Source: Sulfurospirillum deleyianum DSM 6946
GTDB lineage: Bacteria > Campylobacterota > Campylobacteria > Campylobacterales > Sulfurospirillaceae
Length of the DNA: 64,000 bases
Direction of reading: 5' to 3'
NCBI RefSeq assembly: GCF_000024885.1
Contig: NC_013512.1
Span: 930,001 to 994,000 of the forward strand
The position numbers were made by a program, and so were the translations under genes. Shown here in pieces: positions 5,172 through 37,734 of this stretch; the stretch's first letter is position 1; each line of letters opens with the position of its first letter. The notes beneath the pieces were generated by a model. The model ran no database searches and had not been told where the DNA came from. It worked only from the letters and a program-made list of their open reading frames with translations.

Positions 5172-7090
<1,919 letters not shown>

Positions 7091-7215
7091 CTGTCTCCTT
7101 TCAATATATTTGAAAAAAGACTTTAGCAGAACTAATCTGCTCATTTAAGCTTTTGGTTGTAAAAACTACTTTTTAGCAGCTTTTTATACTGCCCATTTTA
7201 ACTCCGCCCTTGACA

Positions 7216-7809: not shown

Positions 7810-8253
7810 ATGCAAGAAACACAAGCACTTAATCTTTTAGATATTCCAAGAAGCACCTTTAAAGAGTGGAGCAATCCAACGCATAAAAAACATAAGCTTT
7901 ATTTACTTCTAAAACATATCGATGCAACGTATGCAGAATCGTGTATTGCTCAAAAAGTTCCTAAAAAAATACTGATTATTTTAAATCGTAATATAAAACA
8001 AGAAGAGCGATTTAGTGACAATGAGATTTTTAAACTCTTCTCTAAAAAAAGTTATGCAAAATTAACCTCGCGCGAGAGAGTGGCCTTTGCCAAAATTGTT
8101 CGTGAATGTGAAGAGGAAGAGTTCAATGAACTTTTCAATGAAGGTGTTGTTTCCAAAGAAGCTTTTCTGCATTTGTTGAGTGCTTCACCATTAGCACCAT
8201 TTTCAGCACTAACTGTATCTCATAATACTCTTTCGCGAACACGCCATGTATGA
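7810..8253 (+). CDS. AbiEi-like antitoxin candidate
   Basis: A 147-residue protein directly upstream of, and overlapping by 8 bases, an AbiEii-type nucleotidyltransferase. The N-terminus MQETQALNLLDIPRSTFKEW looks like a short helix-turn-helix, as expected for a DNA-binding antitoxin that represses its own operon. The rest is helical and charged, and I do not recognise a named domain. The antitoxin role is inferred from position; in type IV pairs the antitoxin gene comes first. Confidence 0.6.
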   Translation: MQETQALNLLDIPRSTFKEWSNPTHKKHKLYLLLKHIDATYAESCIAQKVPKKILIILNRNIKQEERFSDNEIFKLFSKKSYAKLTSRERVAFAKIVRECEEEEFNELFNEGVVSKEAFLHLLSASPLAPFSALTVSHNTLSRTRHV

Positions 8254-8896
8254 TTTTTCATCTCAAGCAAAAATGTTAGGCTATGCAATTCAAGTATTAA
8301 AAGAAGTCAACGTATACGATCAAGCCTCTTTTGGAGGAGGCACAGCATTAAGTGCTTATTATTGGAATCATCGCTATTCAACCGATGTTGATATTTTTCT
8401 TACAACGTCAGGTAGTTTACCACAGTTAAGAGCAGCTATTCAAAAGATGAATATTAGTGATGATATACGCTTTCCTGGCAACTACCTTGAAATATTGATT
8501 TCAGATACAGAAAAAATACAATTTTTTGAAACAAAACCAAAAATGCCTCAAGGTCGTATCTTAACTTCTATTTGGGAGTTTAATGATATTTACATAGAAG
8601 GTATTGAAGAAATTTTGGTTAAAAAGATTTACTATCGAGCCCATAAAGGCAATACAAGAGATATTTTTGATATTGCTGTTGGTCTAGCAAAGAACCCTAA
8701 TTTCTTTCAACTGTGTTTATCAGAAAAGGCATTGACACAAGAACATGTGGATATATTTAAAAATACATTGATGATGATTACTAATAATAAAGAGCTAATG
8801 GCAATCTATCAAGATGAAATTGCTTTAATGGAGCCAGCAAAAGAATATTTAGATTTTGCAAACCACGCACCACAAATCATATTAGATTGCTTGTAA
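8246..8896 (+). CDS. AbiEii-type nucleotidyltransferase toxin
   Basis: This 216-residue protein belongs to the AbiEii/AbiGii (DUF1814) nucleotidyltransferase family, toxins of type IV toxin-antitoxin and phage-exclusion systems. The motif GGGTALSAYYWNHRYSTDVD (residues 30-49) contains the GGTAL loop and the catalytic Asp pair. Downstream, KKIYYRAHKGNTRDIFDIAV (about 130-149) is the family's conserved Lys/Arg-Asp block. The open frame is intact. Its stop is followed after 70 bases by the conserved non-coding region of the recombinase module. Confidence 0.85.
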   Translation: MYDFSSQAKMLGYAIQVLKEVNVYDQASFGGGTALSAYYWNHRYSTDVDIFLTTSGSLPQLRAAIQKMNISDDIRFPGNYLEILISDTEKIQFFETKPKMPQGRILTSIWEFNDIYIEGIEEILVKKIYYRAHKGNTRDIFDIAVGLAKNPNFFQLCLSEKALTQEHVDIFKNTLMMITNNKELMAIYQDEIALMEPAKEYLDFANHAPQIILDCL

Positions 8897-8969
8897 AATA
8901 AACACATACCTAGTCATGCAAAAACTTCTAAATTGAATCATTTCAAATAACCTTTTACTACACTTCCGG

Positions 8970-9000
8970 TTGTAGCGACCGATAAATCGTTGAATATAAT
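8970..9000 (+). promoter_or_regulatory. Promoter of the module RNA, copy 1
   Basis: TATAAT at 8995-9000 lies in an 18-bp block (CGTTGAATATAATCTGCA) identical in copy 2. A possible -35 (TTGTAG, 8970-8975) overlaps a small hairpin CGGT...ACCG (8967-8981) and has a 19-bp spacer. Copy 2 keeps the same spacing and hairpin with different bases. Confidence 0.55.
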
Positions 9001-9005
9001 CTGCA

Positions 9006-9340
9006 CTTTTATAGCATTGCATCGTGCTTGATAAGTTAGTTTCTTATCCCCTTTTTAAACGAAGGTTGGCGTTCTATATGTAGCTCGTGTACATATAAAG
9101 TGGGTGTATGCTTTGCGCATCATGACCCATAGCTTAAGTAGCTATATAACAAGAATCTCTAAATTAGAAGATAATGAAAGTATAGCACCAAAAAAAGATG
9201 CTCTTGCATTTTTACCCGTTTTGGTATGAAGAGAAAAGAGCAGTTTGAAGTGCTAAAAAGTACCACTCTATCGAGCTTCTAAAAAACAGTGTCCGTTGAA
9301 TTTCATTTTTTAATTCAATGGCTAAATTCAACACTTTTTT
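9006..9340 (+). ncRNA. Putative structured RNA of the recombinase module, copy 1
   Basis: This stretch of about 335 bases has no coding frame and aligns with 33385-33728. Shared blocks are TTGCATCG near the start and a hairpin followed by CCCC. That hairpin is GATAAG 9030-9035 with CTTATC 9043-9048 here, and GACTT/AAGTC in copy 2. Further shared blocks are AACAAGAATC, CCGTTTTGGTAT plus GAGAAAA, and a final hairpin GTTGAATTT (9295-9303) with AAATTCAAC (9324-9332) before ACTTTTTT. The hairpin sequences differ between copies while pairing is kept, which supports an RNA. Transcription start is inferred from the TATAAT at 8995. It ends 69 bases before ORF A. The rest of 8897-9408 shows nothing else. 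Function unknown; guide, antitoxin or leader roles are guesses. Confidence 0.6.
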
Positions 9341-9408
9341 CAACGTTTTTTATTTCATTTCAAAACAAAAACGAATAGTAGTATCTCAATTAAAAAAAGG
9401 ATACTGCA

Positions 9409-9915
9409 ATGAAACCAATTTCTTCTAAACAGTTGTTGCATTTTTATGCCAGAATGCCAGAGCCTCTCCAACAGGAAGTGCTTGAAAAAACATTTGAACA
9501 GTATTACACTTTAAAAAGCAGAAATACTGAAGGACTTAATCGTTCAATGCTTTATCACCAAGCATTACTGTTTGTTCTGAAACAATATAATGATACTTTA
9601 ACACTAGGTTCTGCTAAAAAGAACTCTAAAGAACTTGATAGCCTAGATGCAAAAAATAAACTACAGCTTAAAATGTTTGATTCATCTCAGAAAAGAAGTG
9701 CTAAAAAACGATCTAAACTTCTCGATCAATATGCATCATTAATCTATCAATTAAAAGAAAAAGAGGGGAAAAGTTATTCGCAAATCTGTCTCCATCTTGG
9801 CAAATCAAAGAAATTCAAAGTTGATACAACCTATCTTTGCAAACTCTACCCCATTATTAAGCAGAATATCGAAGATTTAAAAGCTATGACTATGGAAAAA
9901 AACAGCATTTTATAA
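9409..9915 (+). CDS. Recombinase-module ORF A, copy 1 (unknown family)
   Basis: A 168-residue helical, lysine-rich protein, clearly homologous to the protein at 35650-36150. Shared stretches are MPEPLQQEVLEKTFEQYYTL here with MPKNLQEETFEYTIQTYYTL there, GLNR-S/A-M/S-LY, then a basic patch (KRSAKKRSKLLDQY with KRRAAKKRDKILGQY). Both end with a helix-turn-helix-like half: SYSQICLHLG...VDTTYLCKLYP with SWIAAYLRRF...IDKTYLFKLYP. The AAAGGA ribosome site is strong. It is the first gene of the module and could be a DNA- or RNA-binding accessory of the recombinase (inference). I recognise no named family. Confidence 0.75.
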   Translation: MKPISSKQLLHFYARMPEPLQQEVLEKTFEQYYTLKSRNTEGLNRSMLYHQALLFVLKQYNDTLTLGSAKKNSKELDSLDAKNKLQLKMFDSSQKRSAKKRSKLLDQYASLIYQLKEKEGKSYSQICLHLGKSKKFKVDTTYLCKLYPIIKQNIEDLKAMTMEKNSIL

Positions 9916-11529: not shown

Positions 11530-12057
11530 ATGTCAGGTGTTGTTATTCCTATTGTGCACGATCTCTATCTGGTTGCCGATAAAATTGAAATTTTAGAAAA
11601 TAGAATTGTTCCTATATCTATTAGCGATTCTGGCAAAATTTTAAAGGCTCAACTGTTTGAAAAATCCCGCGATCATTTCATCATTAAGTCTATGTTTTGG
11701 GATCATACTAGACTTGTCAGCGGTGTTTACATATATCATCTGCATGAAATTTTCATCGCATTTGTGCACAATCGCCTGCGCAGCAAACAAGAGTATTTTA
11801 TCTTCAATAAAAAATATGGATATGGTGTCAAGCTCTATTTTGGAAAGAGTAAAGAACCTGATCTTCACATGGAGGTATATGATAAACAAACCAATAGCTT
11901 TGTCTTGGTACAGAGCTTTTCGAAACTAGAATGTTGCATCATCGTACGAGAAATAAACAACTATTTGCATAAAGGTGAAATCAAAGAGGAATTTTTAGAA
12001 GGTAATGTTAAATGCAACTATAGTGGTAAGAGTTTTACTTTGAGGACACCAGAATGA
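11530..12057 (+). CDS. Recombinase-module ORF B, copy 1 (unknown family)
   Basis: A 175-residue, strand-rich protein homologous to the 188-residue protein at 36140-36706. Conserved stretches include IPI.HDLYL/IPLLQDFYL near the start, L..H.FI...AYVHN-type sequence in the middle (YHLHEIFIAFVHNRL / LYLHHFIEVLLAYVHNDL), KLECCIIVREINNYLHKGEI / KIECRILIRMFFNYLNKGEI, and a closing NVKCNYSGKSF / NTKCNYSNNRF. The ribosome site AAAGGAG precedes ATG 11530. Its stop overlaps the recombinase start by ATGA, exactly as in copy 2. It was probably contiguous with ORF A before the IS4 insertion. Confidence 0.75.
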   Translation: MSGVVIPIVHDLYLVADKIEILENRIVPISISDSGKILKAQLFEKSRDHFIIKSMFWDHTRLVSGVYIYHLHEIFIAFVHNRLRSKQEYFIFNKKYGYGVKLYFGKSKEPDLHMEVYDKQTNSFVLVQSFSKLECCIIVREINNYLHKGEIKEEFLEGNVKCNYSGKSFTLRTPE

Positions 12058-12614
12058 GAGGATCAATACAATATCAAACAGGAGAACTTGCAAAAGTTCT
12101 CTTTTCTCCAGGAATGACAAAACGTGAGCAAAAAGTTACAGGCTTTGTTGCCAATGCCAAAACGCTTGAAACCTATCGAGAGGTATGGAATGAATTAGGT
12201 ATATATGTCAAAGAGCATTTTGCACTCAAAGACCTACAAAAGTTGAATGAGAAGCATATTGTGCACTATATGTACTTTAAAGCGTACCAACAGATTAGCG
12301 AACAGCGCTTGGAACTCATCTCAAGTGCTTTGTATAAGCTAGAAACTGCCTTGCGTAAGCTCAATGCAAAATATTCTCTTGAGAGTTTACGTTACAGCTT
12401 AAATATAGATAGAGAATATGATTTTTCAATCTGTCAAAAAATTCTTGATGAAGCACGTAAAAATCTACTGGTCGTAGAAACAAGCGATGAACCAACCTTT
12501 TGTAGAGCCTATATTGATCCACAAGCTCTTATAGATGCAATCACCGATCCTACTTTCAAACTTGCTACCAAGATTCAATACGAAAGTGGTGCTAGACTCG
12601 AAGGAATTGAGCGC
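12054..12614 (+). pseudogene. Module tyrosine recombinase, copy 1, truncated by IS21
   Basis: The first 187 codons of a tyrosine recombinase, aligning without gaps to the first 187 residues of the intact protein at 36703-37734. Both start MRGSI.[Y/F]QTG and both reach the catalytic Arg181 in ESGAR. IS21 begins at 12615, and the DNA on its far side (14717 onward) does not continue the gene. The half with HxxR and Tyr is therefore missing. This copy cannot recombine on its own. Confidence 0.85.
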
Positions 12615-12739
12615 TGTCAAGGGCGGAGTTAAAATGGGCAGTATAAAAAGCTGCTAAAAAGTAGTTTTTACAACCAAAAGCTTAAATGAGCAGATTAGTT
12701 CTGCTAAAGTCTTTTTTCAAATATATTGAAAGGAGACAG

Positions 12740-14658
<1,919 letters not shown>

Positions 14659-15050: not shown

Positions 15051-15220
15051 AATATCTCTGCATACCACTCTCTTTAAAAGAGAAAAAGGCTATTACCCAA
15101 CAGGCACGATCTTTAAAGCTATCTCGATGCACCTTCATTCATAAAGCTCTATGTCTGCTTCAAAAACAGATGAGACACACAAAAAAAAGACAACACAGGA
15201 GATATTTACATGTACAATGA
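15047..15220 (+). CDS. Small ribbon-helix-helix-like protein
   Basis: ATG 15047 overlaps the previous stop (ATGA). The 57-residue product begins MKYLCIPLSLKEKKAITQQA, then LKLSRCTFIHKAL. A strand followed by two helices fits a ribbon-helix-helix protein. The C-terminus is strongly basic (TKKRQHRRY). It might regulate the group. Similar small pairs are often found on plasmids. Confidence 0.5.
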   Translation: MKYLCIPLSLKEKKAITQQARSLKLSRCTFIHKALCLLQKQMRHTKKRQHRRYLHVQ

Positions 15221-15656
15221 ACCCACAGGCGGATGGATCATGGCACTTCTTGCCACACTACTTGCTATTTGGACGTATAGAGTTTCCAAAAGAATTGAAA
15301 TAGACCATGAAAAAGCGTTTGAAAATATTGAATTTTTAGGACAGAAGTATTGGTGCCTACATCAAGAAGAGCCACACTTTATGCTTCGTCTTAAAACACT
15401 CATTGAAAAAATCAAACAAGGCTCCTTTGGAATTGTGTATGAAAAAAAAGAGCCTCAAGTGGTTCTTTTACCTATCGATGAGTTTGACAGGCTCAAAGCG
15501 ATTGAAGAGTATTTAGAAGATCAAGAGATTGCAAAGATTATAGAAGAGTGTCTTCATACAAGAGATAAAAATGAGCCACATCCTTTGGAGAAATTTGAGA
15601 CGTTGCGAGCAAAAATATATGAAAAATACGCTTCAAAGCAGAATGAACATGAGTGA
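15210..15656 (+). CDS. Membrane-anchored protein with Phd/YefM-like segment
   Basis: A 148-residue protein with one N-terminal membrane segment (GGWIMALLATLLAIWTYRV, residues 7-25) and a soluble tail. Residues about 70-105 (QGSFGIVYEKKEPQVVLLPIDEFDRLKAIEEYL) resemble the Phd/YefM antitoxin fold, where a regulator reads 'vkrdGkpvavllpleeyerL'. A membrane-bound antitoxin-like domain is unusual, and no toxin is next to it. The AGGAG ribosome site supports ATG 15210, and it overlaps the previous gene. Function unknown. Confidence 0.55.
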   Translation: MYNEPTGGWIMALLATLLAIWTYRVSKRIEIDHEKAFENIEFLGQKYWCLHQEEPHFMLRLKTLIEKIKQGSFGIVYEKKEPQVVLLPIDEFDRLKAIEEYLEDQEIAKIIEECLHTRDKNEPHPLEKFETLRAKIYEKYASKQNEHE

Positions 15657-15903
15657 GTTTATACTATCCATTGTTGTGATGATAGTGCTTTGTATGATGT
15701 ATGTTTTTATCTTAAGACCTGTTCATAGACGCTATGATGCAGTATTTAATCATCTTTTAGCAAAAGAGATTGCCAGAAGGCTTTATCAAGAAACCCATCC
15801 AGAATTTAGCTATAAAGTCTATCATGAGGATGATTTGCAACGCCAAATCATCCTAGGCAGTGCGGTGAAAGAGTTTAGAAGATTGGTCAAAAAAAATAGT
15901 TAA
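15649..15903 (+). CDS. Small single-pass membrane protein
   Basis: An 84-residue protein starting MSEFILSIVVMIVLCMMYVFIL, a clear membrane helix, then a charged cytoplasmic tail ending EFRRLVKKNS. ATG 15649 overlaps the previous stop by eight bases. Its C-terminus has a diverged relative in the remnant at 637-773, so the pair marks the ends of a duplicated segment. Family unknown; an upstream in-frame ATG at 15571 is unlikely, since it lies deep inside the preceding gene. Confidence 0.6.
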   Translation: MSEFILSIVVMIVLCMMYVFILRPVHRRYDAVFNHLLAKEIARRLYQETHPEFSYKVYHEDDLQRQIILGSAVKEFRRLVKKNS

Positions 15904-16116
15904 CATTTACGATTGATTAACAAGGCGTTTGAAAACCATTGAAGCTGCAACTCCATGCTTTCACAAGCAAGACAAATATCTCCTTTTTTTCTTTAAACAT
16001 CTCATATAATACTTCATTTTGTATCACACATTAAAGTCAAACCATAATATTATTGGCTATAATCAAACGAATTCATCACAAAGAAGCACCGTGAAACTGA
16101 TTCATTTTTCGGACAC
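15770..16116 (+). repeat. Right member of diverged direct repeat (sbcD upstream segment)
   Basis: Partner of 637-1046. It holds the end of the small membrane-protein gene, the intergenic region with the promoter core, and the start of intact sbcD. The region between the two members (1047-15.8 kb) is the accessory patchwork. Confidence 0.75.
16035..16063 (+). promoter_or_regulatory. Promoter of sbcD-sbcC
   Basis: A good -10 TATAAT (16058-16063) after TTGG (extended type), with a weak -35 (AGTCAA near 16035). The same core occurs upstream of the truncated sbcD copy at 986-991. The GTG start follows 27 bases later. Confidence 0.55.
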
Positions 16117-17209
16117 GCATTTAGGCTTTAACGATTTAGATGTTATCAATGAGCTCGGTATCAACCAGCGAGAAGCTGACTTTTACGATGCGTTTACGCA
16201 GGTCATTGAGCAAATCAAAGCAATAAAACCTGATTACATCATCCACACGGGTGATCTTTTTCACCGCCCATCTCCTAGCAATCGAGCTATCACTTTCGCT
16301 CTTGAACAGTTTAAAATCATCGAAGCACTGAATATCCCATTTATCATGATAGCGGGCAATCACTCCACGCCACGTACCAATTTAAGCTCTCCCATTCTCA
16401 AAATATTTGAAAATTTTAAAAATGTTTATGTCTCATACAATCAAGAGTACAAAAAAATCGAGTTTGATGATGTGGTCTTTCACACCTTGCCCCATATGCA
16501 CGATGAGACAAAAGCACTTTCTCAAATCGAACTGTGTGAAGAAAATCTCGATGCAACCAAACGCAACATCATGATGCTTCACTGCTCTGTGGGCGCGCAC
16601 TATTTGATGGCGGAGTTTGGCGAATGGGTGTATCCACACGACAAAGAGAGCCTTTTTTCTAAAGTGGATTATGTCGCTCTTGGGCATTGGCATGGCTTTG
16701 GGAAAGTCGGCAAACACGAAAATGTTTACTATGCAGGCTCCACCGAACGCACCAGTTTAAACGACAAACGAAACTCCAAAGGTTTTCTTGAAGTCACACT
16801 GGATGAGGCTTTATATGTAAACTACCACGAGATACAAATTCGCCCCATCAAAACCTACGATATCAATTGTGAAGACTTTGAGCACTCAGTTGAGTCTTTA
16901 CATGTAAACGATACAAAAGACGCTCTTATCGAAGTCAAACTGACCAATCTCACCCCTTTGCAGTCCATTGACATTCAAACTCGTGACATCAAAAATCTCT
17001 TTGGCGAAGCTTTACATGTAAGCATCAAAAGAGAGTTCAAACAAACCAACGGTGAAGCCACACTAAATGACATTGAAGCCCTCTCTTTGGAAACGTATTT
17101 TTTAGAACACATCAAAGAAGAGAGTCAGCCCGAAGCGTTTGAACGGCTCAAATCAAAAATACAAGAATTATTTGTCAGTTACGAAGAGGTGAGCGATGAT
17201 ACTCTCTAA
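16091..17209 (+). CDS. sbcD: SbcD exonuclease subunit (Mre11-like)
   Basis: A 372-residue metallophosphoesterase that pairs with SbcC to open hairpins and process blocked DNA ends. Motifs in order: DTHLG (residue 8), HTGDLFH (about 53), AGNHS (about 92), HCSVG (about 160), GHWHGFG (about 197). I choose GTG 16091 because the domain starts there (VKLIHFSDT) and the duplicated copy keeps GTG; the frame upstream reads into the promoter. It overlaps sbcC by 14 bases. Two TTACATGTAA palindromes lie inside (16898, 17012), read as LHV. Confidence 0.93.
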   Translation: MKLIHFSDTHLGFNDLDVINELGINQREADFYDAFTQVIEQIKAIKPDYIIHTGDLFHRPSPSNRAITFALEQFKIIEALNIPFIMIAGNHSTPRTNLSSPILKIFENFKNVYVSYNQEYKKIEFDDVVFHTLPHMHDETKALSQIELCEENLDATKRNIMMLHCSVGAHYLMAEFGEWVYPHDKESLFSKVDYVALGHWHGFGKVGKHENVYYAGSTERTSLNDKRNSKGFLEVTLDEALYVNYHEIQIRPIKTYDINCEDFEHSVESLHVNDTKDALIEVKLTNLTPLQSIDIQTRDIKNLFGEALHVSIKREFKQTNGEATLNDIEALSLETYFLEHIKEESQPEAFERLKSKIQELFVSYEEVSDDTL

Positions 17210-19565
17210 ACTTCACCTTGAAAACTTCAAACGCTATAGCTCTTTTGACATCGAGTTTGGCGAGGGGCTGATAGGCATTATCGGTAAAAATGGCAGTGGT
17301 AAATCCACGCTCTTTGAAGCGATACTCTTTGCACTCTACGGAGAGCTTAGAAACAAAAAATTTAAAGAAGTCATACGCAACGCTAGTGCGAGTGACAAAG
17401 ATGCCGTTGTGGTTGAGCTTGATTTTGAATTTGAGAGCATGGCGTACAAAGTCGTTCGAGAGTTTCGAGGCAAAGCCCTCAGTGCCAATGCCAAGCTTTA
17501 TAAAAATGGCGAACTGAGTACCAGTGGTGCAAAAGAGGTTACGACGGCTATCATCAAGCTAACCAAGATGAGCAAAGAGGCATTTTTGCATACCCTTTTC
17601 GCTTCTCAAAAAGAGCTGACAAGCCTCAGCACGCTTAAAAATGAAGATCGAAAAAAGATGATACGCAAACTTCTTGGGCTTGAAAAGATAGACTTTGTGG
17701 AAAATGAACTCATCGAAAAAAGCAGGGAACTCAAACGAGACATCGCAGCAAGTGCAGAATTTCTTTTAGGCGAAGAAGAGTTAAAGAGCAAAACAGTGTT
17801 GATAAAAGAAACTACCGTCATAAAACAAGCGTTTGAAAAAGAAGTAAAAACTAAATCCCTAGAGTTAGAAACCACCAAAAAACAAGAGTTACATGTAAAG
17901 CAAGAACTCGAACTTTTTGTCAAAACAAAAGAGCAAAAACAAAAGCTCATCAGTGAACTCTCTCTCATCAAAAACTCTATAACTTCAAACCTAGCCACTC
18001 AAACCAAACTCACCGAAGAGCTCAAAAACTTAGAAACAAAAGCCAAAGAACTTAAAGCGCAAAGCAGCGTTAAAAAAGAGTACGAATCTTTGTCAACTAA
18101 GCTAAAAGAGCAAGAAACTCTCAAAAATATCCAGATCAAAAAAGAGGGTTTGGAAAAAGAGCAAACTCAGTTACGTGCCCAGTACACCAAAGCCAAAGCA
18201 GACATCGCAACTTTGGAAGAGCAAGTCAAACCCTATGAGACACTTTTAGGGCAAAAAAAAGAAAATGAAGCTTTACATGTAAAGATAAAAACCGAACTTA
18301 CGGGCAAGCAAACAGAGCAAAAACAACTTCAAAATGAACTCTCAGCCGAACAGCGAGTCGTCTTAGACACACAACAAAAGATAGCCAAGATACAAAGCTT
18401 AGGACGAGAATCAAACTGCCCGACATGCACAAGGCAATTGCTCGACGAATACGACAATGTCATCGCATCCCTAAACGACATCGTGCAAAAGACGCAAAGT
18501 CAAAAGATAGACAAAACCAAAGAAAAACTTGAACTCCTCACCAAACAGATAGGAGAGCTTGAACTTCAAAAAGAGCAAACGCAAAAAGCCTTACATGTAA
18601 ATGAGACGGCATTAAGTTTGATACTCAGCAAACAAAAAGATTTGGCAAGTGCCAAAGAGCATTTTACGAAGGTCAGTGAACAAGGCAAACGCAACAAAGA
18701 GGAACTGGATAAACTCGCACAACACGCTTACGATGAAGCTTTACATGTAAGCCTACAAAAAAGCTTTTTGGAGCTAAAACCAAAGTACGAAGCCGTTCTA
18801 AGTCTTGAAGCAGAACTCAAACGAGAGCAGGGTGTTCGGGAGGATCTCGCGCTTACATGTAAGAGTGCAGAAGCTTTACATGTAAAGGCAAAAGAGAAAG
18901 AAACAGAAGTTTCAAAAACACTTTACGATGAGCCAAAACACACCGCAAAACAAAGCGAATACGACGAACTTCAAAAGCAAAAAGAGAAACAATACAGCGT
19001 TATTTCAGAGCTAAAAGAAAAGATAGCCAAGAATGAAGGCGAGATAAAAACCTTGCAAAACGCTCTTGAAAATAACGACATACAACTTAAAAAAGTACAG
19101 AGTAAAAAAGACGATTTGCAAGACTATGAGAAAATCAAACTAAGCCTTAGTGAGTTTAAAACAAAACTCAACTCAAAAATAGCCCCACGCATCTCACAAA
19201 TCGCCTCGCAGATGTACGCCACCATCACCAAAGGCAAATACCAATACATCGAAGTGAACAACGACTTTGACTTTTTCATCTACGACGAGGGCAAATGCTA
19301 CCCCATAGAACGCTTCAGCGGTGGCGAGATAGACCTTGCCAACCTAGTGCTTCGCATCGCCATCTCCAAAACACTGAGTGAACTGAACGGTGCAAGTAGC
19401 GTGGGATTTTTAGCCTTCGATGAAGTCTTCGGAAGTCAAGACGAAAACCGAAGAATGGAAATCTTAGAAGCGTTTCATACCATAAAAGAACAGTACAGAC
19501 AGATATTTTTAATAAGCCATGAGATGGAGATAAAAGAGATGTTTGAGAGGGTTATTGAACTTTAA
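17196..19565 (+). CDS. sbcC: SbcC, Rad50-like SMC ATPase
   Basis: A 789-residue SMC-type ATPase, partner of SbcD. Walker A GKNGSGKST is near residue 30. Long coiled coils flank a zinc hook CPTC near residue 408. The C-terminal lobe has signature RFSGGEIDL (about 705) and Walker B FLAFDEVFGSQD (about 740). It has six TTACATGTAA palindromes, five of them read as LHV inside the coiled coil and one as TCK. Such short inserts are easily tolerated in coils, so this gene is the densest carrier in the window. Confidence 0.93.
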   Translation: MILSKLHLENFKRYSSFDIEFGEGLIGIIGKNGSGKSTLFEAILFALYGELRNKKFKEVIRNASASDKDAVVVELDFEFESMAYKVVREFRGKALSANAKLYKNGELSTSGAKEVTTAIIKLTKMSKEAFLHTLFASQKELTSLSTLKNEDRKKMIRKLLGLEKIDFVENELIEKSRELKRDIAASAEFLLGEEELKSKTVLIKETTVIKQAFEKEVKTKSLELETTKKQELHVKQELELFVKTKEQKQKLISELSLIKNSITSNLATQTKLTEELKNLETKAKELKAQSSVKKEYESLSTKLKEQETLKNIQIKKEGLEKEQTQLRAQYTKAKADIATLEEQVKPYETLLGQKKENEALHVKIKTELTGKQTEQKQLQNELSAEQRVVLDTQQKIAKIQSLGRESNCPTCTRQLLDEYDNVIASLNDIVQKTQSQKIDKTKEKLELLTKQIGELELQKEQTQKALHVNETALSLILSKQKDLASAKEHFTKVSEQGKRNKEELDKLAQHAYDEALHVSLQKSFLELKPKYEAVLSLEAELKREQGVREDLALTCKSAEALHVKAKEKETEVSKTLYDEPKHTAKQSEYDELQKQKEKQYSVISELKEKIAKNEGEIKTLQNALENNDIQLKKVQSKKDDLQDYEKIKLSLSEFKTKLNSKIAPRISQIASQMYATITKGKYQYIEVNNDFDFFIYDEGKCYPIERFSGGEIDLANLVLRIAISKTLSELNGASSVGFLAFDEVFGSQDENRRMEILEAFHTIKEQYRQIFLISHEMEIKEMFERVIEL

Positions 19566-19581
19566 AAACGAAAGGATTTCT

Positions 19582-21393
19582 ATGAAATTACATTCATTAC
19601 GGATAGAGGGTTTTAGGCGTTTTGTTGACACAACAATTTATTTTGATGATGCAACATTTTTAATTGGTGAAAATAACATTGGGAAAAGTAGTGTTTTAAA
19701 AACTATTGAATTACTGCTATCTTTAGAACAAAAAATCTGTCCTGAAGATTTTTATAGTTTATTTCATGAAGATGAAAATCAGCGACAGGTTGATTCAGTT
19801 GTTTTAACAGCTGAATTTAGGGATGTCCCTACTGAAGCTAATTCTTGGCGAGGCTTTAGAGGAAGAATATTTAACTATACTGTGCCTGAAAATAGTATAG
19901 AAACAGGATTATCAGTAATTTATAAAAAAACATTTTCTCTTGCAACACTAAAACCAGTAATTGAATTTAAACAATCTGTAAAGACTTTAAAATCTGAATA
20001 TGCAAGTGCACAAAAATGGCAGGATTTTATTGTAGCTTCTAATAATGAAATTACAGAAGAGATGATAACTGAAATTTTTCAAGTAACAAGTTTTAATATA
20101 AAAGCAAAACCTGAACAATTAGACTTATTGGATGAAATTTGGGACATAGATACAACAGCTGAAGAATGGTTTATTAATCCTGGTGGTTTCCCCTCAAATG
20201 TTGCTAGTAAACTTCCAAGATATTTGTTTATTCCAGCTCAAGATAGAATGGAAGAACTTTCGACAACTAGTGGTGTATTGCATAAAACTCTTAATGAACT
20301 TTTTGAAGATGTAAGAAATGTATCACCAAACTATTTAGAAGCACAAAGGCATCTAAATTTACTAGCACAAGAGCTAGATCCATCAAATACTGCAAGTGAT
20401 TTTTATACCTTAATGCAAAATTTAAACGGTGTTCTGCGAGGAGTGTTTCCAGATTCAGAAATACATGCAAAAGCAGATTTAAGCAATCCAGATAAAAATA
20501 TTAAAGCGACATTTGATATTCAAATGAAAAGCAATATTTTAACTCCTATTAGCCACCAAGGAACAGGGACGGTTAGAGCAGCCGTATTTGGATTATTGAG
20601 ATATAGAAAAATATGGGAAGCTGCAAAAGATCCTACTCAACGCAGAAGCTTAATTATTGGATTTGAAGAACCAGAAATATATTTACATCCAAATGCGGCT
20701 GAACAAATGCGAAGGAAAATTTATGAACTTGCAGGAGAAGAATCACAAATCGTTTGTACTACACATTCAACATATATGATTGATTTATCAAAAGATAAGA
20801 ATCAAGTATTAAATAGATTTTCAATTACTGAAGCCGAAGGTACTATTTGTAATCCGTTTAGTGTTTCAGAAAGATTTAGAGACTTATTAGACGATGATAA
20901 AAATCATGTAAAAATGTTGATAAAGTTTGATGATTACATGTCAAGAGTATTTTTTGCAAACAAAATCATTATTATCGAAGGTGATACTGAAGAAATTGTT
21001 TTGAAAGAAACTATCAAATTAATGCCAGAAGAAATTCAACACAAAATCTTATCTAATGTTCAAATTGTTAAAGCTAGAGGTAAAGCAGCGATTATTTCAC
21101 TAGTAAAATATTTGAATTCTATGGGTTTAGACTATTTCGTTATTCATGATAGAGATAGAGGTACAGATAGAGCAGAAAATTATAATATTCATATTTTGAC
21201 AGCTATGAATAATCAAGAGAGCAAAAGGATTATGATGGAAGAATGTATAGAAGATGAACTTGGTTATCCTGCACCAAGTAGTGAAAAACCATATAATGCA
21301 TATCAAAAAACTCAAGAATGGGAAAATTGGGAGTCCGTCCCTGATACTTGGAAAACAAAAATGCAAATTGTTTTTAGTGAATATTTTAATTAG
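19582..21393 (+). CDS. OLD-family ATPase/TOPRIM nuclease
   Basis: A 603-residue overcoming-lysogenization-defect type protein: an ABC ATPase fused to a TOPRIM nuclease. Walker A IGENNIGKSS is at residues 28-37. A Gln-rich/signature region and GFEEPEIYLHP (Walker B, about 356) follow. The TOPRIM Glu is in IIIIEGDTEE (about 463) and the acidic pair in FVIHDRDRGTD (about 516). ATG 19582 has AAAGGA before it; the frame from 19543 overlaps sbcC. OLD proteins act in phage defence alone (class 1) or with a UvrD-like helicase (Gabija). No helicase is adjacent, so class 1 is more likely. It is AT-richer than sbcC and free of the palindrome, which suggests later insertion. Confidence 0.88.
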   Translation: MKLHSLRIEGFRRFVDTTIYFDDATFLIGENNIGKSSVLKTIELLLSLEQKICPEDFYSLFHEDENQRQVDSVVLTAEFRDVPTEANSWRGFRGRIFNYTVPENSIETGLSVIYKKTFSLATLKPVIEFKQSVKTLKSEYASAQKWQDFIVASNNEITEEMITEIFQVTSFNIKAKPEQLDLLDEIWDIDTTAEEWFINPGGFPSNVASKLPRYLFIPAQDRMEELSTTSGVLHKTLNELFEDVRNVSPNYLEAQRHLNLLAQELDPSNTASDFYTLMQNLNGVLRGVFPDSEIHAKADLSNPDKNIKATFDIQMKSNILTPISHQGTGTVRAAVFGLLRYRKIWEAAKDPTQRRSLIIGFEEPEIYLHPNAAEQMRRKIYELAGEESQIVCTTHSTYMIDLSKDKNQVLNRFSITEAEGTICNPFSVSERFRDLLDDDKNHVKMLIKFDDYMSRVFFANKIIIIEGDTEEIVLKETIKLMPEEIQHKILSNVQIVKARGKAAIISLVKYLNSMGLDYFVIHDRDRGTDRAENYNIHILTAMNNQESKRIMMEECIEDELGYPAPSSEKPYNAYQKTQEWENWESVPDTWKTKMQIVFSEYFN

Positions 21394-21430
21394 AACAATT
21401 TGATAGTTTAAAAATAAAAAAGGAGATTAA

Positions 21431-21652
21431 ATGAATGTTTATTTAGATATCAATGGAGATTCTGGTGTATCGGCTTATGAAATAGGTGAAGATAATATTA
21501 AAGTTAAATTTAAAGGTACTGCAAATTTTTATGTATATTCATATACAAGTGCAGGAAAAGAAAATGTTGAACATATGAAGAAACTTGCTCAAAGCGGAGA
21601 TGGTTTAAATAGTTTTATTAATCTAAATGTTAAATATAAATATGTTAGATAA
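21431..21652 (+). CDS. KTSC-like small protein
   Basis: A 73-residue protein (VYLDINGDSGVSAYEIGEDN near the start, then FYVYSYTSAGKENVEHMKKL and GLNSFINLNVKYKY). This pattern resembles the KTSC-type domain found in small proteins of phages and plasmids. An AGGAG site is six bases before ATG. It follows the OLD gene by 37 bases and may be its partner. Its molecular role is not known to me. Confidence 0.6.
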   Translation: MNVYLDINGDSGVSAYEIGEDNIKVKFKGTANFYVYSYTSAGKENVEHMKKLAQSGDGLNSFINLNVKYKYVR

Positions 21653-21661
21653 TGTTTTAAC

Positions 21662-23140
21662 ATGACCCTCTCAAAATCCCTCTACACCAGAGCCATTCAA
21701 TGCCCAAAATCCCTCTGGCTGAAAAAGTACACACCAGAGGTTTTAACCCCACCCGATGCCAGTGCCAAAGCACGGTTTGAGACGGGTAATATTGTGGGGG
21801 ATTTGGCGTGTAAATTGTTTCCTGATGGGCGTGAGATACCTTTTGATGCACACGATTTTAAAAGCATGGCGAGGCTGACCCAAGCGTATCTTGATGAGGG
21901 TGTGGAAAATATCTACGAGGCGACATTTATTTACGAGGGTATCGTGGTGATGGTGGACATCTTGCGCCAAACGCCTCTTGGCTTAGAGCTGTATGAAGTG
22001 AAAAGTTCCACCGATGTGAAGCCTATCTATCTGCATGATGTTTCCATTCAGCTGTATGTTTTAGAAGCCCTTGGGTTTAAGGTTGGGGCGTGTCATGTGG
22101 TGCATATCAACTCAGGCTATGTGCGAGAAGAAGCGTTGGAGCTTGAAAAGCTTTTTGTGGTGGTCGATGTCACAGGTGAGGTGCAAGATTTGCAAGGCTC
22201 TATTCCTGCAAAACTTGAAGCGTTTGAGGCGTATCTGGACGATAAATACCATGAGCCAAACATCGACATTGGCAAACAGTGCAATGACCCTTACGAGTGC
22301 GATGCGAAGGCGTATTGTTGGAAAGTTCAGCGACATATCCCAGAGTACAGCATCTTTAACATCTTCAATCTTGGCAGTAAAAAACAACAAGAGCTTTATG
22401 CACAAAACATCGTGGCAATTGAAGCTATACCCGAAGATTTTGCGATGACACCCATCCAATGGCAAAAAGTCGATAACTGGAAAAAGCAACACACCTTTAT
22501 CGACCATGAGGCAATCGCCGAGTTTTTAGAAACACTCACCTATCCCATCTATCATCTTGACTTTGAGACCTTTCAACAAGCCGTGCCTTTGTGGAACGGT
22601 GTCAGCCCTTACAAACAAATACCGTTTCAATACTCTTTACATGTAGAACACCGTGATGGCACTTTGGAGCATAAAGCATTTTTAGCAGAAGCGGGAGTTG
22701 ACCCAAGACGTGCTTTGGCTGAGAAACTGGTCGAAGACATACCTTTACATGTAAACATTTTGACATACAATATGAGCTTTGAAAAGGGCGTCATCGCCTC
22801 ACTTGCCGAGCTGTTTCCAGACTTACATGTAAGGCTTATGCACATACACGAAAACATCAAAGATTTGATGCTTCCTTTCCAAAAAGGACACTACGTCACC
22901 CCCTCCATGCAAGGCAGTTACTCCATCAAATACGTTCTTCCTGCTCTTGTTCCTGAGATGGAATTAGCCTATAAAAAGTTAGAGGGCATCCAAAATGGCG
23001 GTGATGCCATGAACGCATACGCTTCTTTACATGTAAAAAATTTTGATGAACAGATGAAAGTGCGTGAGCAATTGTTACGATATTGTGAACTTGATACTTT
23101 GGCGATGGTGAAGGTGTTGGGGAAATTGAAGGAGGTTTAA
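21662..23140 (+). CDS. DUF2779 protein: Cas4-like nuclease plus DnaQ-like exonuclease
   Basis: A 492-residue two-domain protein. The N-terminal domain is PD-(D/E)XK-like: Glu86, Asp99 (MVDI) and Glu112-x-Lys114 (YEVKSS). Cysteine 14 and a CNDPYECDAKAYC cluster (about 206-218) could hold an iron-sulfur cluster as in Cas4 and AddB. The C-terminal half has an RNase-H-like exonuclease with HLDFETF (about 297) and ELDTLAMVKVL (about 478). Three TTACATGTAA motifs lie inside it. The stop overlaps the ATG of the WYL gene by one base. The biological role is unproven; a DNA-end-processing role is likely. Confidence 0.8.
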   Translation: MTLSKSLYTRAIQCPKSLWLKKYTPEVLTPPDASAKARFETGNIVGDLACKLFPDGREIPFDAHDFKSMARLTQAYLDEGVENIYEATFIYEGIVVMVDILRQTPLGLELYEVKSSTDVKPIYLHDVSIQLYVLEALGFKVGACHVVHINSGYVREEALELEKLFVVVDVTGEVQDLQGSIPAKLEAFEAYLDDKYHEPNIDIGKQCNDPYECDAKAYCWKVQRHIPEYSIFNIFNLGSKKQQELYAQNIVAIEAIPEDFAMTPIQWQKVDNWKKQHTFIDHEAIAEFLETLTYPIYHLDFETFQQAVPLWNGVSPYKQIPFQYSLHVEHRDGTLEHKAFLAEAGVDPRRALAEKLVEDIPLHVNILTYNMSFEKGVIASLAELFPDLHVRLMHIHENIKDLMLPFQKGHYVTPSMQGSYSIKYVLPALVPEMELAYKKLEGIQNGGDAMNAYASLHVKNFDEQMKVREQLLRYCELDTLAMVKVLGKLKEV

Positions 23141-24054
23141 TGACTAAAGCAAAAGACTTGGAAAGATATGAATATATTTTCACGAAAATTAGAAGAGGTG
23201 AAGAATTGCATCCAGTTGAAATTGCTGAATACTTGGGATGTAATAGAAAAACAATAACACGTGATTTTGAAAAAATTATCTCTGTTTTATTTGAATCACC
23301 TATAGAGTATAATGGAAATAAATGGATCGTTCCTAAGCCTATTATTGACATACGTGCTTATACCGCCAGTAATTTAGTGTCAATTGCGTTACTCCTTAAA
23401 AAAGCTTATCATGAAGACCCTTATCTTTATGATAAATCCATAGAACTTTTTGATTTTCTTCAAGAAAAGGTATCTCATTCTGTCTATAAGCAAAACTCTA
23501 TTGAAGAATTATTTCCTTCTTGTAAAGATGAATTTTATTTAATTAAAAATGCTATTGAAAAAACACAAGAGATAAAATTCTCATTTCATTATGATGATAA
23601 TGTTAAACATGTTCAACCATTGAAAATTACAAACTTAGAACAGTATTGGTATCTGTTTTGTTATGACTTAGAGCAGAGTTCATTTTGGATATATCATTTT
23701 AAGGGAATAAAAAATATAAAGGTACTTGATCAAATCTTTAATTTGGATGAACATCTTTATCGTGATAAATTAGAAAATGCAATTAATGCTTATTTCAATA
23801 TTTATGAAAAAAATGAAGTACGCCTTAGATTGTCAAAAGCTCCGATGAAAGTGTTGAAACGTAAACAACTTAATAGTTCTCAGAAAATATATAAAGATGA
23901 AGAGTTTCAAGATAAATATATTATGGATATAACAGTATCTGATTTAAGAGAAATCTCGCCTTTAGTCCAACAATGGATACCACATATAGAAGTCATATAT
24001 CCAGAAAATCTAAAAAATATTATTCGAGAAAATCTAAAAAATTATACTCTATAG
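23140..24054 (+). CDS. WYL-domain transcriptional regulator
   Basis: A 304-residue regulator. The N-terminal helix-turn-helix is HPVEIAEYLGCNRKTITRDF (about 26-45). The WYL-like domain spans about 145-195 (IKFSFHYDD ... ITNLEQYWYLFCYD). It ends in a C-terminal WCX region. GGAGG precedes ATG, which overlaps the upstream stop. WYL proteins often repress neighbouring defence operons and sense nucleic acids or nucleotides, so it could control the Wadjet operon 66 bases downstream. It could equally control its own upstream genes. Confidence 0.85.
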   Translation: MTKAKDLERYEYIFTKIRRGEELHPVEIAEYLGCNRKTITRDFEKIISVLFESPIEYNGNKWIVPKPIIDIRAYTASNLVSIALLLKKAYHEDPYLYDKSIELFDFLQEKVSHSVYKQNSIEELFPSCKDEFYLIKNAIEKTQEIKFSFHYDDNVKHVQPLKITNLEQYWYLFCYDLEQSSFWIYHFKGIKNIKVLDQIFNLDEHLYRDKLENAINAYFNIYEKNEVRLRLSKAPMKVLKRKQLNSSQKIYKDEEFQDKYIMDITVSDLREISPLVQQWIPHIEVIYPENLKNIIRENLKNYTL

Positions 24055-24119
24055 CATAGTGAGGAAACATTTTTGTCCTTTAAATATTTTATACTTTCTA
24101 AAACTTTAAAGGAGGGATA

Positions 24120-24806
24120 ATGTTATTAGCAATTCATTATGATAGAAAAAAAAGAGCAGAAGACGCTGGTCGGGGAGAATTTGGAATATGTCCTTGGAGT
24201 AATTTGGAAGTAAAAGCACATGTTGGACTGATTCGTCAATTTTGGGCCTACACAGATAAAAAGCCAGTATTTGATAAAGGATATGAACCTGAATCAGAAT
24301 GGCATATTTCTTGGAAAACACCAATTAAAGATGAATATTGTGAAGTAATTTTTGGTGAAAACAATGAGCATAGGGCAGATATTTTAGGTTCCAATAACAC
24401 AGTAATAGAAATTCAAAGAAGTAAAATTGATATGAGAGACTCTAGGGAAAGAGTAGAATTCTATCAACTTGCTACAAATAGAAGAGTTATTTGGGTAGTT
24501 GATATTCAAGAGTTTTGGAATAAGAGGTTCTTCTTAAAACCATCTAAAGAGCGTGGTATATTTATAGTTGAGTGGGAACCTAAGAGAACATGGCTATGGG
24601 ATTTAGCTTCCACCCCTAACACAAATTTATATTTAGAATTTAATCATTCAAACGACAAATTACTTCATGTATGGATTCATAATACTATGATGCATGCAAA
24701 GTATTTTAAGAAAGAGGATTTTTTTAACAGATATATGTTTGATGTTGCAAAAGAAGAATTTCAAATAAATATTCAGGATGCTATTGATGTATTATGCGGT
24801 AAATAA
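24120..24806 (+). CDS. CoiA-like nuclease-domain protein
   Basis: A 228-residue protein of the competence protein CoiA-like group with a PD-(D/E)XK-type core: CEVIFGENNEHRADIL (Glu, then Asp near residue 90) and VIEIQRSKIDMRDSRERVEF (Glu-x-Gln/Lys). The N-terminal half has a cysteine and several Trp residues (ICPWSNLEV). AAAGGAGGG lies at the proper distance from ATG. It precedes jetA by 21 bases and thus seems to be part of that operon. It is not a standard Wadjet component. Confidence 0.75.
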   Translation: MLLAIHYDRKKRAEDAGRGEFGICPWSNLEVKAHVGLIRQFWAYTDKKPVFDKGYEPESEWHISWKTPIKDEYCEVIFGENNEHRADILGSNNTVIEIQRSKIDMRDSRERVEFYQLATNRRVIWVVDIQEFWNKRFFLKPSKERGIFIVEWEPKRTWLWDLASTPNTNLYLEFNHSNDKLLHVWIHNTMMHAKYFKKEDFFNRYMFDVAKEEFQINIQDAIDVLCGK

Positions 24807-24827
24807 AAAAATAAATGGTAAATATAC

Positions 24828-26006: not shown

Positions 26007-26007
26007 T

Positions 26008-31137: not shown

Positions 31138-31285
31138 ATTAAAAGTTTAACCATTTCAAAAAACTAACAAACAAAAATTAAAAAACACATGTTATATCGG
31201 TTTTATATAGTACGAAGTAGTTGTTGCAATATTAATAGTAACTTGATACTTAGGCGACGATTTAGATATTTAAAAAAGGCTATAA

Positions 31286-32728: not shown

Positions 32729-32755
32729 GATAATAGAATCAAAGGCATTTATAGA

Positions 32756-33295: not shown

Positions 33296-33345
33296 TGTAA
33301 ATTCCTAAATACGCTCCATTTCTATTTTAAATTTATAGCACTATA

Positions 33346-33379
33346 CGGTTGCTATAACCGAAATAACGTTGAATATAAT
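33346..33379 (+). promoter_or_regulatory. Promoter of the module RNA, copy 2
   Basis: TATAAT at 33374-33379 in the shared 18-bp block CGTTGAATATAATCTGCA. TTGCTA (33349-33354) is the possible -35 with a 19-bp spacer, placed inside the hairpin CGGTT...AACCG (33346-33360). Spacing is the same as in copy 1. Confidence 0.55.
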
Positions 33380-33384
33380 CTGCA

Positions 33385-33728
33385 TAAGTTTAGCGTGTTG
33401 CATCGGCACTTACTTGCGTTTTTGACTTTGGTACAAGTCCCCAAAAACCAATCTTCTCATAAAATGGAATGCTAGGTTAGGCATCACTAATGCACCACAC
33501 ATTAGCAAAGAAGTGTTTGACTAACACTTTAAAAAACAAGAATCGTTTAAAAGAAACATGATGCAAGTATATCAGAAGCATTGAGGCATAATTTAATTTT
33601 CATCCGTTTTGGTATATACCGAGAAAACGTATTTTTCACGTATAAAAAGCCTTGGAATAGGACTTTTATAAAATAAGTATAATTGAATTTAGAATACTAA
33701 TTCTGTTGCTAAATTCAATCTTTTATTC
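33385..33728 (+). ncRNA. Putative structured RNA of the recombinase module, copy 2
   Basis: About 340 bases without a coding frame, colinear with 9006-9340. It starts with TTGCATCG and has a hairpin GACTT (33424-33428) with AAGTC (33435-33439), then CCCC. It shares AACAAGAATC and CCGTTTTGGTAT...GAGAAAA. It ends in an 11-bp perfect hairpin ATTGAATTTAG (33682-33692) with CTAAATTCAAT (33709-33719), followed by CTTTTATT, a good terminator. In copy 1 the outer pair of that stem is G-C instead of A-T, a compensating change. The rest of 33296-33754 shows nothing else. Confidence 0.62.
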
Positions 33729-35649: not shown

Positions 35650-36150
35650 ATGGAATCAAAAAAATTACATAGGTTTTTTGTAACAATGCCAAAAAACTTA
35701 CAAGAAGAAACGTTTGAATATACAATACAAACATATTATACATTGAAAGGTAACCCTGAATATCAAGGCTTAAATCGAGCATCTCTTTATTTTGAGTCTT
35801 TCTTGATAGCATTAGAAAGATCATTTAATATCATTAATAATGGTACATCAAAAAGCCATGCAAGGGATTTACAATCTATTCAAAAGCAGAGTGCTTCACG
35901 CGAAAAAATGATTGACACTAAAAAACGAAGAGCTGCAAAAAAACGTGACAAAATTCTTGGTCAATATTGTGCTCTTATTTACAGTTTTAGATATGAAAAA
36001 AAGAAAGAATTTTCTTGGATCGCTGCTTACTTAAGACGTTTTCATAAACTTACAATTGATAAAACCTATTTATTTAAGCTTTATCCATTCATTGTTGAAA
36101 AAATGAAAAATAACCTAGATGCAGATCAAGGAGTAAGTAATGGATTATAA
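35650..36150 (+). CDS. Recombinase-module ORF A, copy 2 (unknown family)
   Basis: A 166-residue homologue of the protein at 9409-9915. It has the same order: an N-terminal MPKNLQEETFEYTIQTYYTL helix, the GLNRASLY motif, a basic KKRRAAKKRDKILGQY patch and a C-terminal helix-turn-helix-like SWIAAYLRRF...DKTYLFKLYPF. A GGAG site precedes ATG. It overlaps ORF B by 11 bases, which shows the tight native arrangement that the IS4 element broke in copy 1. Probably nucleic-acid binding (inference). Confidence 0.78.
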   Translation: MESKKLHRFFVTMPKNLQEETFEYTIQTYYTLKGNPEYQGLNRASLYFESFLIALERSFNIINNGTSKSHARDLQSIQKQSASREKMIDTKKRRAAKKRDKILGQYCALIYSFRYEKKKEFSWIAAYLRRFHKLTIDKTYLFKLYPFIVEKMKNNLDADQGVSNGL

Positions 36151-36706
36151 TCAATTTACAAATTCATGCAACGAATCAAGAGACTTAGGTATCCCTTTGT
36201 TACAAGATTTTTATTTAAATGTTAAAAAAATATCTTTTCCAAACAATAGGAATATACCACTTATAATGAATGATTATGGCAAGGTATCAAAAACGTATTT
36301 ACTTCAGAAAAAAGATACTTTTTTTCAAATTTATTCGCTTGGTTGGGGAAATGATATTCTTGTCAGGACACTATATCTTCATCATTTTATAGAAGTTTTG
36401 CTTGCATACGTTCATAACGATTTGAGCTTACATGGTGAATATGTTATTTTAAATGTATCAAATCAATTTGGAATTCGAATCACTATTGATTCAAAATCAA
36501 AAATCCTAAATATTGAAAATTTTGATTATCTGAAAAATATTTTTACTCCTCTTACATCGATTAATAAAATTGAGTGTCGAATTTTAATTCGTATGTTTTT
36601 CAATTATCTAAACAAAGGCGAGATTTCAGAATCAGAAGATGATTTTGATGGCAATACGAAATGTAATTACTCGAACAATCGATTCTATTTGAAGGTCTTA
36701 GAATGA
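36140..36706 (+). CDS. Recombinase-module ORF B, copy 2 (unknown family)
   Basis: A 188-residue homologue of 11530-12057. Shared features are IPLLQDFYLNVKKI near the start, the LHHFIEVLLAYVHNDL helix in the middle, KIECRILIRMFFNYLNKGEI and the final CNYSNNRFYL. It overlaps the recombinase start by four bases (ATGA), as in copy 1. No named domain recognised. Constant pairing with the recombinase suggests a directionality or targeting factor. Confidence 0.78.
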   Translation: MDYNQFTNSCNESRDLGIPLLQDFYLNVKKISFPNNRNIPLIMNDYGKVSKTYLLQKKDTFFQIYSLGWGNDILVRTLYLHHFIEVLLAYVHNDLSLHGEYVILNVSNQFGIRITIDSKSKILNIENFDYLKNIFTPLTSINKIECRILIRMFFNYLNKGEISESEDDFDGNTKCNYSNNRFYLKVLE

Positions 36707-37734
36707 GAGGCTCAATTTATTTTCAAACAGGAATTCTTGTTTCCATACTTTACACACCAGGACTTTCAAAAATAGATCAAAAAGAGAGTGTTTTCATTGC
36801 AAATTCAGATACGCTAGAAACCTATCGCGCTGTATGGAATGAGCTAGGGATCTATTGTAAAAGCATGTACGGACTAAAAGACCTACAAGACCTTAGTGGC
36901 GAACATATTCAGTCTTATATGACGGCAAAATCGAATCAAAATATTACTGAGCAATATTTTGAGTTAGTTTCATGTGCAATAGGTAAATTGGAGGTTGCAC
37001 TACGTCTCTTAAATGCAACATATTCATATCAAAATCCAAAATATTTTGAACAAAGAGATAGAGATTATGACTTTTCTATCCGAAAAATCATTCTTACTCA
37101 AGCACGAGACGAACTAAAAGTTAAAGAAACAAGCGACGACCCAAAATTTTGCAGAGAATATGATGATCCTAAAGCTATGATTGAAGCGCTGGACGAGCAA
37201 AAATTTTATATAGCTGCTCGTATTCAATTTGAAAGTGGTGCTAGGTTTGATGGTGTTCATAGAATCGATCAATATATGGTTGTACAAACGCGAAAACTTT
37301 TTGAAAATAAATTAGATAATATTGTTGAGTATAAGCGTATTGATAGTACTTTTTGTCAAGTATCACAAATGCAAGGTACTATAATTGATCCATTCACTGG
37401 TAATAAAAAAGGTACTCTATTTGATGTCGAAAAAGGTGGTAAGCCAGGTTTACTTTATGTAAGTGAAAAAACATATACCATGCTAGAAGAATATTTTACA
37501 AGAAATAAGGTATTTATTGTTCATGCACATCAGTATAGGCGATCCCTCATTAATGCTGCAAAAGCTACAAATCAAGACTACCAAGGAACACACGGCTTCA
37601 GATGGAATTTTGCAAGAAATCGTTTTGAAGAGTTGCAAATTTTTGGTAATTTAACATATGAGCAAGCACTTCAACAAGTTTCTTGGGAAATGAAGCATGA
37701 GAGAGCAGACATTACAGAGCATTATCTTAGATAA
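36703..37734 (+). CDS. Module tyrosine recombinase, intact
   Basis: A 343-residue tyrosine recombinase. Residues 1-165 form a SAM-like core-binding part. The catalytic set is complete: Arg181 (ESGARFDG), His297-x-x-Arg300 (THGFRWNF), His332 and Tyr341 (MKHERADITEHY). The His-to-Tyr spacing of nine is as in phage integrases, and only two residues follow the Tyr. It differs from the integrase at 38034 in size, arrangement and the very short tail. Genes A and B always precede it. Substrate sites are unknown. Confidence 0.88.
   Translation: MRGSIYFQTGILVSILYTPGLSKIDQKESVFIANSDTLETYRAVWNELGIYCKSMYGLKDLQDLSGEHIQSYMTAKSNQNITEQYFELVSCAIGKLEVALRLLNATYSYQNPKYFEQRDRDYDFSIRKIILTQARDELKVKETSDDPKFCREYDDPKAMIEALDEQKFYIAARIQFESGARFDGVHRIDQYMVVQTRKLFENKLDNIVEYKRIDSTFCQVSQMQGTIIDPFTGNKKGTLFDVEKGGKPGLLYVSEKTYTMLEEYFTRNKVFIVHAHQYRRSLINAAKATNQDYQGTHGFRWNFARNRFEELQIFGNLTYEQALQQVSWEMKHERADITEHYLR

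What the first reader, a model, noticed from the sequence alone, without database searches (positions are those of the whole stretch)
9006..9340. Conserved structured RNA candidate: compensating changes between two copies
Seen: 9006-9340 and 33385-33728 share an 18-bp identical promoter block, TTGCATCG, AACAAGAATC and CCGTTTTGGTAT. At least three hairpins keep pairing while bases differ: CGGT/ACCG versus CGGTT/AACCG, GATAAG/CTTATC versus GACTT/AAGTC (each followed by CCCC), and GTTGAATTT/AAATTCAAC versus ATTGAATTTAG/CTAAATTCAAT before a T-run. Inference: a ~335-nt RNA made just upstream of recombinase accessory genes; a guide-like role is speculative.
Basis: partly seen in the sequence, partly recalled or inferred. 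Interest (0 to 1): 0.8.

Follow-up and report, generated by a model that had tools for sequence, protein, structure and literature searches.

The report
New structured RNA beside a recombinase
Two stretches of this bacterial genome encode an undescribed, knotted RNA, read from the strand opposite to the one first proposed, that accompanies one unusual DNA-rearranging enzyme across a whole bacterial order and may be its working partner.

Summary
The signal is real, but the RNA is on the minus strand. Window 8958-~9172 and 33334-~33559 (both minus) are two divergent copies of one structured RNA absent from Rfam. Homologues accompany a divergent tyrosine recombinase ("C") in Campylobacterales. 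In 399 genomes, an RNA model built only from other genera gave 27 hits: 25 upstream of C on its strand, one beside partner gene A, one chance hit in ssb. The window's best hit with that model is 8964-9035 minus. The RNA has an extended -10 box, hairpins (one with a YNCG-type loop), a GAUGCAA loop, a UGCAGAUU-N-AAC motif and a 3' H-type pseudoknot. 16 of 23 tested pairs show changes on both sides; G-U far exceeds A-C in the minus orientation. In the Sulfurospirillum form the RNA is never C's leader (divergent, 1.9 kb away, or downstream), so I favour a trans-acting partner or regulator of the recombinase (0.55) over a cis leader. No guide-like match to flanking DNA was found. No transcript data were available.

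The parts
8958..9172 (-). RNA copy 1 (5' end ~9172 inferred from the -10 box, 3' end at or beyond the pseudoknot)
   Evidence: homology to RNA+C loci of other genera, R2 best window hit 8964-9035 minus
8958..8981 (-). H-type pseudoknot of copy 1 (CGGT:ACCG and CTACA:TGTAG)
   Evidence: all six genus variants pair, with double changes
   Evidence: TGCAGATTGACTTAAC in other genera
9013..9028 (-). P2 hairpin AGCA-CGATGCAA-TGCT with conserved GATGCAA loop
   Evidence: loop shared with other genera, stem covaries there
9030..9048 (-). hairpin GATAAG/CTTATC
   Evidence: GACTT/AAGTC in copy 2, GATAGA/TCTATC in L034
9179..9187 (-). extended -10 promoter-like box TGCTATACT
   Evidence: TGnTAnnnT at this place in nearly all homologues
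9216..9227 (-). conserved upstream DNA element ATACCAAAACGG (plus strand CCGTTTTGGTAT)
   Evidence: invariant in all genus copies
9314..9343 (-). direct-repeat array TTGAA, 12-13 bp spacing
   Evidence: equivalent TGTTT or TGTAAA arrays spaced 12-10/11-12 in other genera
9409..9915 (+). ORF A copy 1, accessory protein (predicted helical, C-terminal HTH)
11530..12057 (+). ORF B copy 1
12054..12632 (+). ORF C copy 1, N-terminal part of tyrosine recombinase cut by IS21
33334..33559 (-). RNA copy 2 (pseudoknot 33334-33360, motif 33368-33384, P2 33395-33409)
33566..33574 (-). extended -10 promoter-like box TGATATACT of copy 2
35650..36150 (+). ORF A copy 2
36140..36706 (+). ORF B copy 2
36703..37734 (+). 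ORF C copy 2, intact divergent tyrosine recombinase
   Evidence: R181, K244, H297, R300, H332, Y341 invariant in 12 homologues

Best explanation
The finding is one of two window copies of a new family of small structured RNA, about 215-225 nt here, transcribed from the minus strand from its own promoter. It belongs to a module whose only constant protein is a divergent tyrosine recombinase, C; accessory proteins (A and B, or A, F3 and F5) are optional. The RNA most likely acts in trans, as a separate molecule that binds the recombinase or one of its partners and is needed for, or controls, its action. Shown here: conservation, structure, strand, near-obligate association with C, and independence of position in the Sulfurospirillum form. 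Inferred: transcription, trans action and binding to the recombinase.
For: Covariation with controls: 12 of 15 and 4 of 8 pairs with double changes outside the genus, 94.9-98.4% of cells paired. Strand: G-U 9 versus A-C 1, 2 versus 0. Model from other genera finds the window copy on the minus strand as best hit and the equivalent copies in L032, L033, L106. 23 of 24 RNA-positive genomes carry C, P about 7e-24. RNA plus C is the shared block in several locus sets. In the Sulfurospirillum form the RNA is divergent, 1.9 kb away, or downstream of C, with no gene after it on its strand; in G065 it lies beside A while C follows a resolvase gene directly.
Against: No transcript or binding data. In most loci outside the genus the RNA lies directly upstream of C, as a cis leader would. 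The window hit with the independent model is weak on its own (E 0.078). C's own N-terminal region shows no known RNA-binding domain.
Confidence: 0.55

Rival explanations
1. A cis-acting 5' leader that controls expression of C (or of AbiE cargo plus C), for example an autoregulatory protein-binding leader; the Sulfurospirillum copies are relocated derivatives.
For: 25 of 27 model hits lie upstream of C on the same strand, most within 130 nt of its start.
Against: In the Sulfurospirillum form no gene follows on the RNA's strand, yet the pseudoknot keeps covarying; G065 also has RNA and C uncoupled.
Confidence: 0.27
2. The region is a recombination or resolution site acting as DNA (folded single strand, or arm-type repeats plus core) for C, and the pairing reflects DNA folding.
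For: Lineage-specific direct repeats with fixed 12-10/11-12 spacing mark the left edge of the unit; in the Sulfurospirillum form homology ends at the pseudoknot.
Against: Promoter-like box, UACG/UUCG-type loop and pseudoknot fit RNA better; the site is unsplit in every integrated copy; no partner half-site or terminal repeat was found.
Confidence: 0.12
3. A guide RNA in the manner of IS110 bridge RNA that pairs with target or donor DNA.
For: A structured RNA next to a recombinase in islands of varied position.
Against: No excess match between RNA and flanks in 55 comparisons; unpaired segments are conserved, not variable.
Confidence: 0.05

Closest known systems
IS110 bridge RNA (PMC11208160)
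   Same: A structured noncoding RNA encoded next to a DNA recombinase in a mobile element.
   Different: The enzyme here is a tyrosine recombinase, not an IS110 enzyme; no sign of target- or donor-pairing loops.
Rcd RNA of the ColE1 cer site (PMC3973702)
   Same: A small regulatory RNA encoded within a site served by tyrosine recombinases.
   Different: Rcd is about 70 nt, acts on tryptophanase, and the recombinase is the host's XerCD (the last from memory). Here the RNA is larger, knotted and travels with its own recombinase.
Mobile/repeat sequence candidates (MRSC) of large RNA-motif screens (PMC11109978)
   Same: Structured motifs found near transposase or integrase genes, function unknown.
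   Different: No Rfam match; tied here to one recombinase clade, with accessory genes.

Membership tests
Any Rfam 15 family | score at or above the family's gathering threshold | tested here: not met
   window scan: only a tRNA; local scan: nothing near threshold
Tyrosine recombinase (protein C) | catalytic R, K, HxxR, H/W, Y | tested here: met
   R181, K244, H297, R300, H332, Y341 invariant in 12 homologues
IS110 bridge RNA | partner is an IS110 recombinase | tested here: not met
   partner C aligns as a tyrosine recombinase
IS110 bridge RNA | loops complementary to target and donor DNA | tested here: inconclusive
   no excess match to flanks, but exact insertion sites unknown
cis-regulatory leader | lies in the 5' UTR of the gene it controls in every member | tested here: not met
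   met in most loci, not in the Sulfurospirillum form or G065
Rcd/cer | RNA made within a dimer-resolution site, acting as a checkpoint | not testable with these tools
   needs experiment

The most novel reading that the evidence does not exclude
An RNA-dependent tyrosine recombinase: C works only as a complex with this pseudoknotted RNA, which supplies part of DNA recognition or of synapsis. I know of no such system.
Probability: 0.25. Interest if true: 0.9.

Novelty: new variant of a known kind. Interest (0 to 1): 0.66.

Why it matters
RNA partners are known for IS110 recombinases but, to my knowledge, not for the large tyrosine recombinase family that moves islands, phages and integrons. 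Here an RNA is the constant companion of one recombinase clade across a bacterial order, so its role can be tested in a two-part system of a 220-nt RNA and a 340-residue enzyme. If it proves to be only a leader or regulator, it is still a new RNA family, carried by islands with defence genes.

Tried and rejected
Rfam: no match. Plus-strand reading: rejected, because in other genera the 'promoter' block is a conserved motif without TATAAT and G-U/A-C counts favour minus. Third hairpin as terminator: not conserved in L034. Guide pairing with flanks: no excess. Terminal repeats, or a shared motif after C: none found. Pattern scans of genome and viral collections: the only confirmed hits were S. 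diekertiae; of the others, those scored with R1 gave nothing. C in phage records or viral contigs: none. RNA near more distant C homologues: no R2 hit in L174-L177 or L115, and the second C of pSulSP follows another ORF directly. R2 hit in G120 lies inside ssb, a chance hit. Structure models: B is low confidence (pLDDT 57) and its best structural rows are weak (VIA Z 4.1 to YkuJ; Whirly, MRP, PUR and PC4 rows at Z 2-3); A is helical with an HTH resembling sigma region 4 at Z 6.2 or less, which may be only a common arrangement. The host name S. deleyianum rests on genome length and memory. Empty insertion sites were not searched for.

Full report
What was checked. The window is G000:C1:930001-994000 of a 2.31-Mb genome. 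The two stretches are intergenic and have no Rfam match. On the plus strand beyond each lie genes A, B and C. C is a divergent tyrosine recombinase: no Pfam hit for the window copy, but all catalytic residues are invariant in 12 homologues. In copy 1 an IS4-like and an IS21 element interrupt the module, and the C-terminal half of a C lies 0.3 Mb away beside another IS21 copy.

Homologues in the genus. Motif and model searches found the element in 7 Sulfurospirillum genomes, 10 copies and 6 distinct sequences; each of these genomes also carries C. Plasmid pSulSP carries one version within the same island.

The wider family and the strand. C homologues occur in 45 of 399 Campylobacterales genomes. 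Mapping about 50 loci showed a conserved noncoding stretch of about 400-550 nt directly upstream of C in other genera. Its 3' end reads TGCAGATTGACTTAAC followed by an H-type pseudoknot (GCCT-AAGATAG-AGGC-TGAAA-CTATC). The Sulfurospirillum element is the same in reverse complement: TGCAGATTATATTCAAC, then CGGT-CG-CTACA-ACCG-GAAG-TGTAG. The block read as a plus-strand promoter is therefore a conserved piece of a minus-strand RNA. A model built from 18 loci of other genera (R2) has its best hit in the 64-kb window at 8964-9035 minus (E 0.078, weak alone), and hits L033, L032 and L106 at the matching place and strand.

Structure. For P2 and the two pseudoknot stems, 96.6% of cells pair and 12 of 15 pairs show double changes (shuffles 6.0, sd 1.2; 0 of 500 as high; slid versions 27-47% paired). 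For P0 and inner P1, 98.4% pair and 4 of 8 pairs show double changes, with loop UACG in most, UUCG in one, CACG or CAAG in the rest. Within Sulfurospirillum the pseudoknot pairs in all 6 sequences, with a largely replaced stem in c2; P2 counts as broken in c2 only because that alignment is shifted there by one column. G-U exceeds A-C in this orientation: 9 to 1, 2 to 0, and 7 G-U with no A-C by inspection of the P0/P1 alignment. An extended -10 box, TGnTAnnnT, precedes the RNA in nearly all loci. Further upstream lie direct repeats whose box differs by lineage (TGTTT, TGTAAA, TTGAA) but whose spacing is kept at 12-10/11-12 bp, or 12-13 bp in Sulfurospirillum.

Association. R2 applied to 399 genomes gave 27 hits: 25 upstream of C on the same strand (AbiE genes between in two), one beside gene A on a contig without C, and one inside ssb, a chance hit. 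Twenty-three of 24 RNA-positive genomes carry C (P about 7e-24 if independent; relatedness makes this too small). In several locus sets the shared block is RNA plus C and nothing else, so A, B, F3 and F5 are optional.

Mechanism. In most loci of other genera the RNA could be C's leader. In the Sulfurospirillum form it is not: it is divergent from A-B-C (c1, L032, L033, L106), divergent and 1.9 kb away (c2), or 1.9 kb downstream of C (L034-L038), with no gene following directly on its strand. In G065 it sits next to A while C follows a resolvase gene directly. Continued covariation without a cis target favours a trans-acting RNA that works with, or controls, the recombinase. Binding to C is inference. 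A guide role was tested by comparing RNAs with flanking DNA and found no support, though exact insertion sites are unknown. Structure models of A and B gave only weak hints.

Comparison. IS110 bridge RNAs (PMC11208160) share the layout of RNA beside recombinase but belong to another enzyme class. Rcd of the ColE1 cer site (PMC3973702) is a precedent for an RNA inside a tyrosine-recombinase site. Neither is a membership match. Large motif screens (PMC11109978) report structured motifs near integrases as a class of unknown function.

Limits. There are no expression data; related sequences inflate shuffle tests; the model's E-values are rough; the 5' and 3' ends are inferred from the promoter-like box and the pseudoknot.

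Noticed in passing
L143 9245-9293, L148 1269-1317, L158 1407-1455: A 49-nt sequence (AATATCAAGCCCTAAGACGGGAGCGACTCTGCTAGTTCTTGAGGGCTGA) is 100% identical after C in three genomes while flanks diverge: a possible element end or attachment site.
   Followed up: partly
window 5172-7144 and 12686-14658; G000:C1:1260451-1260966: IS21 copies split the copy-1 recombinase; its C-terminal half lies 0.3 Mb away beside another identical IS21, so the chromosome was probably rearranged between IS21 copies.
   Followed up: partly
window 15210-33295: Between the two RNA copies lies what looks like a defence island (SbcCD-like genes, OLD-like ATPase, DUF2779, a Wadjet/JetABCD-like set, HD phosphohydrolase, NERD nuclease); names partly from gene order and memory.
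   Followed up: no
L045 7111-8708, L042 7180-8777; window 8246-8896: AbiE toxin-antitoxin genes sit directly next to the RNA's pseudoknot end in several unrelated loci.
   Followed up: no
L034-L038 and L112 (pSulSP): One RNA version sits in an island near cobamide-type biosynthesis genes that is shared, nearly identical, between five chromosomes and plasmid pSulSP.
   Followed up: partly
L114 7953-7983: On a Trichlorobacter plasmid (another phylum) a pseudoknot-like sequence CCCT-GGCTA-AGGG-TAGCC lies about 20 nt before the C homologue; single case, no model hit.
   Followed up: partly
L209 1714-2384, L211 4664-5672: Small plasmids pTRACA66 and pTRACA41 carry remote C homologues with 0.7-1 kb gaps upstream without annotated genes, besides a separate replication gene.
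   Followed up: no
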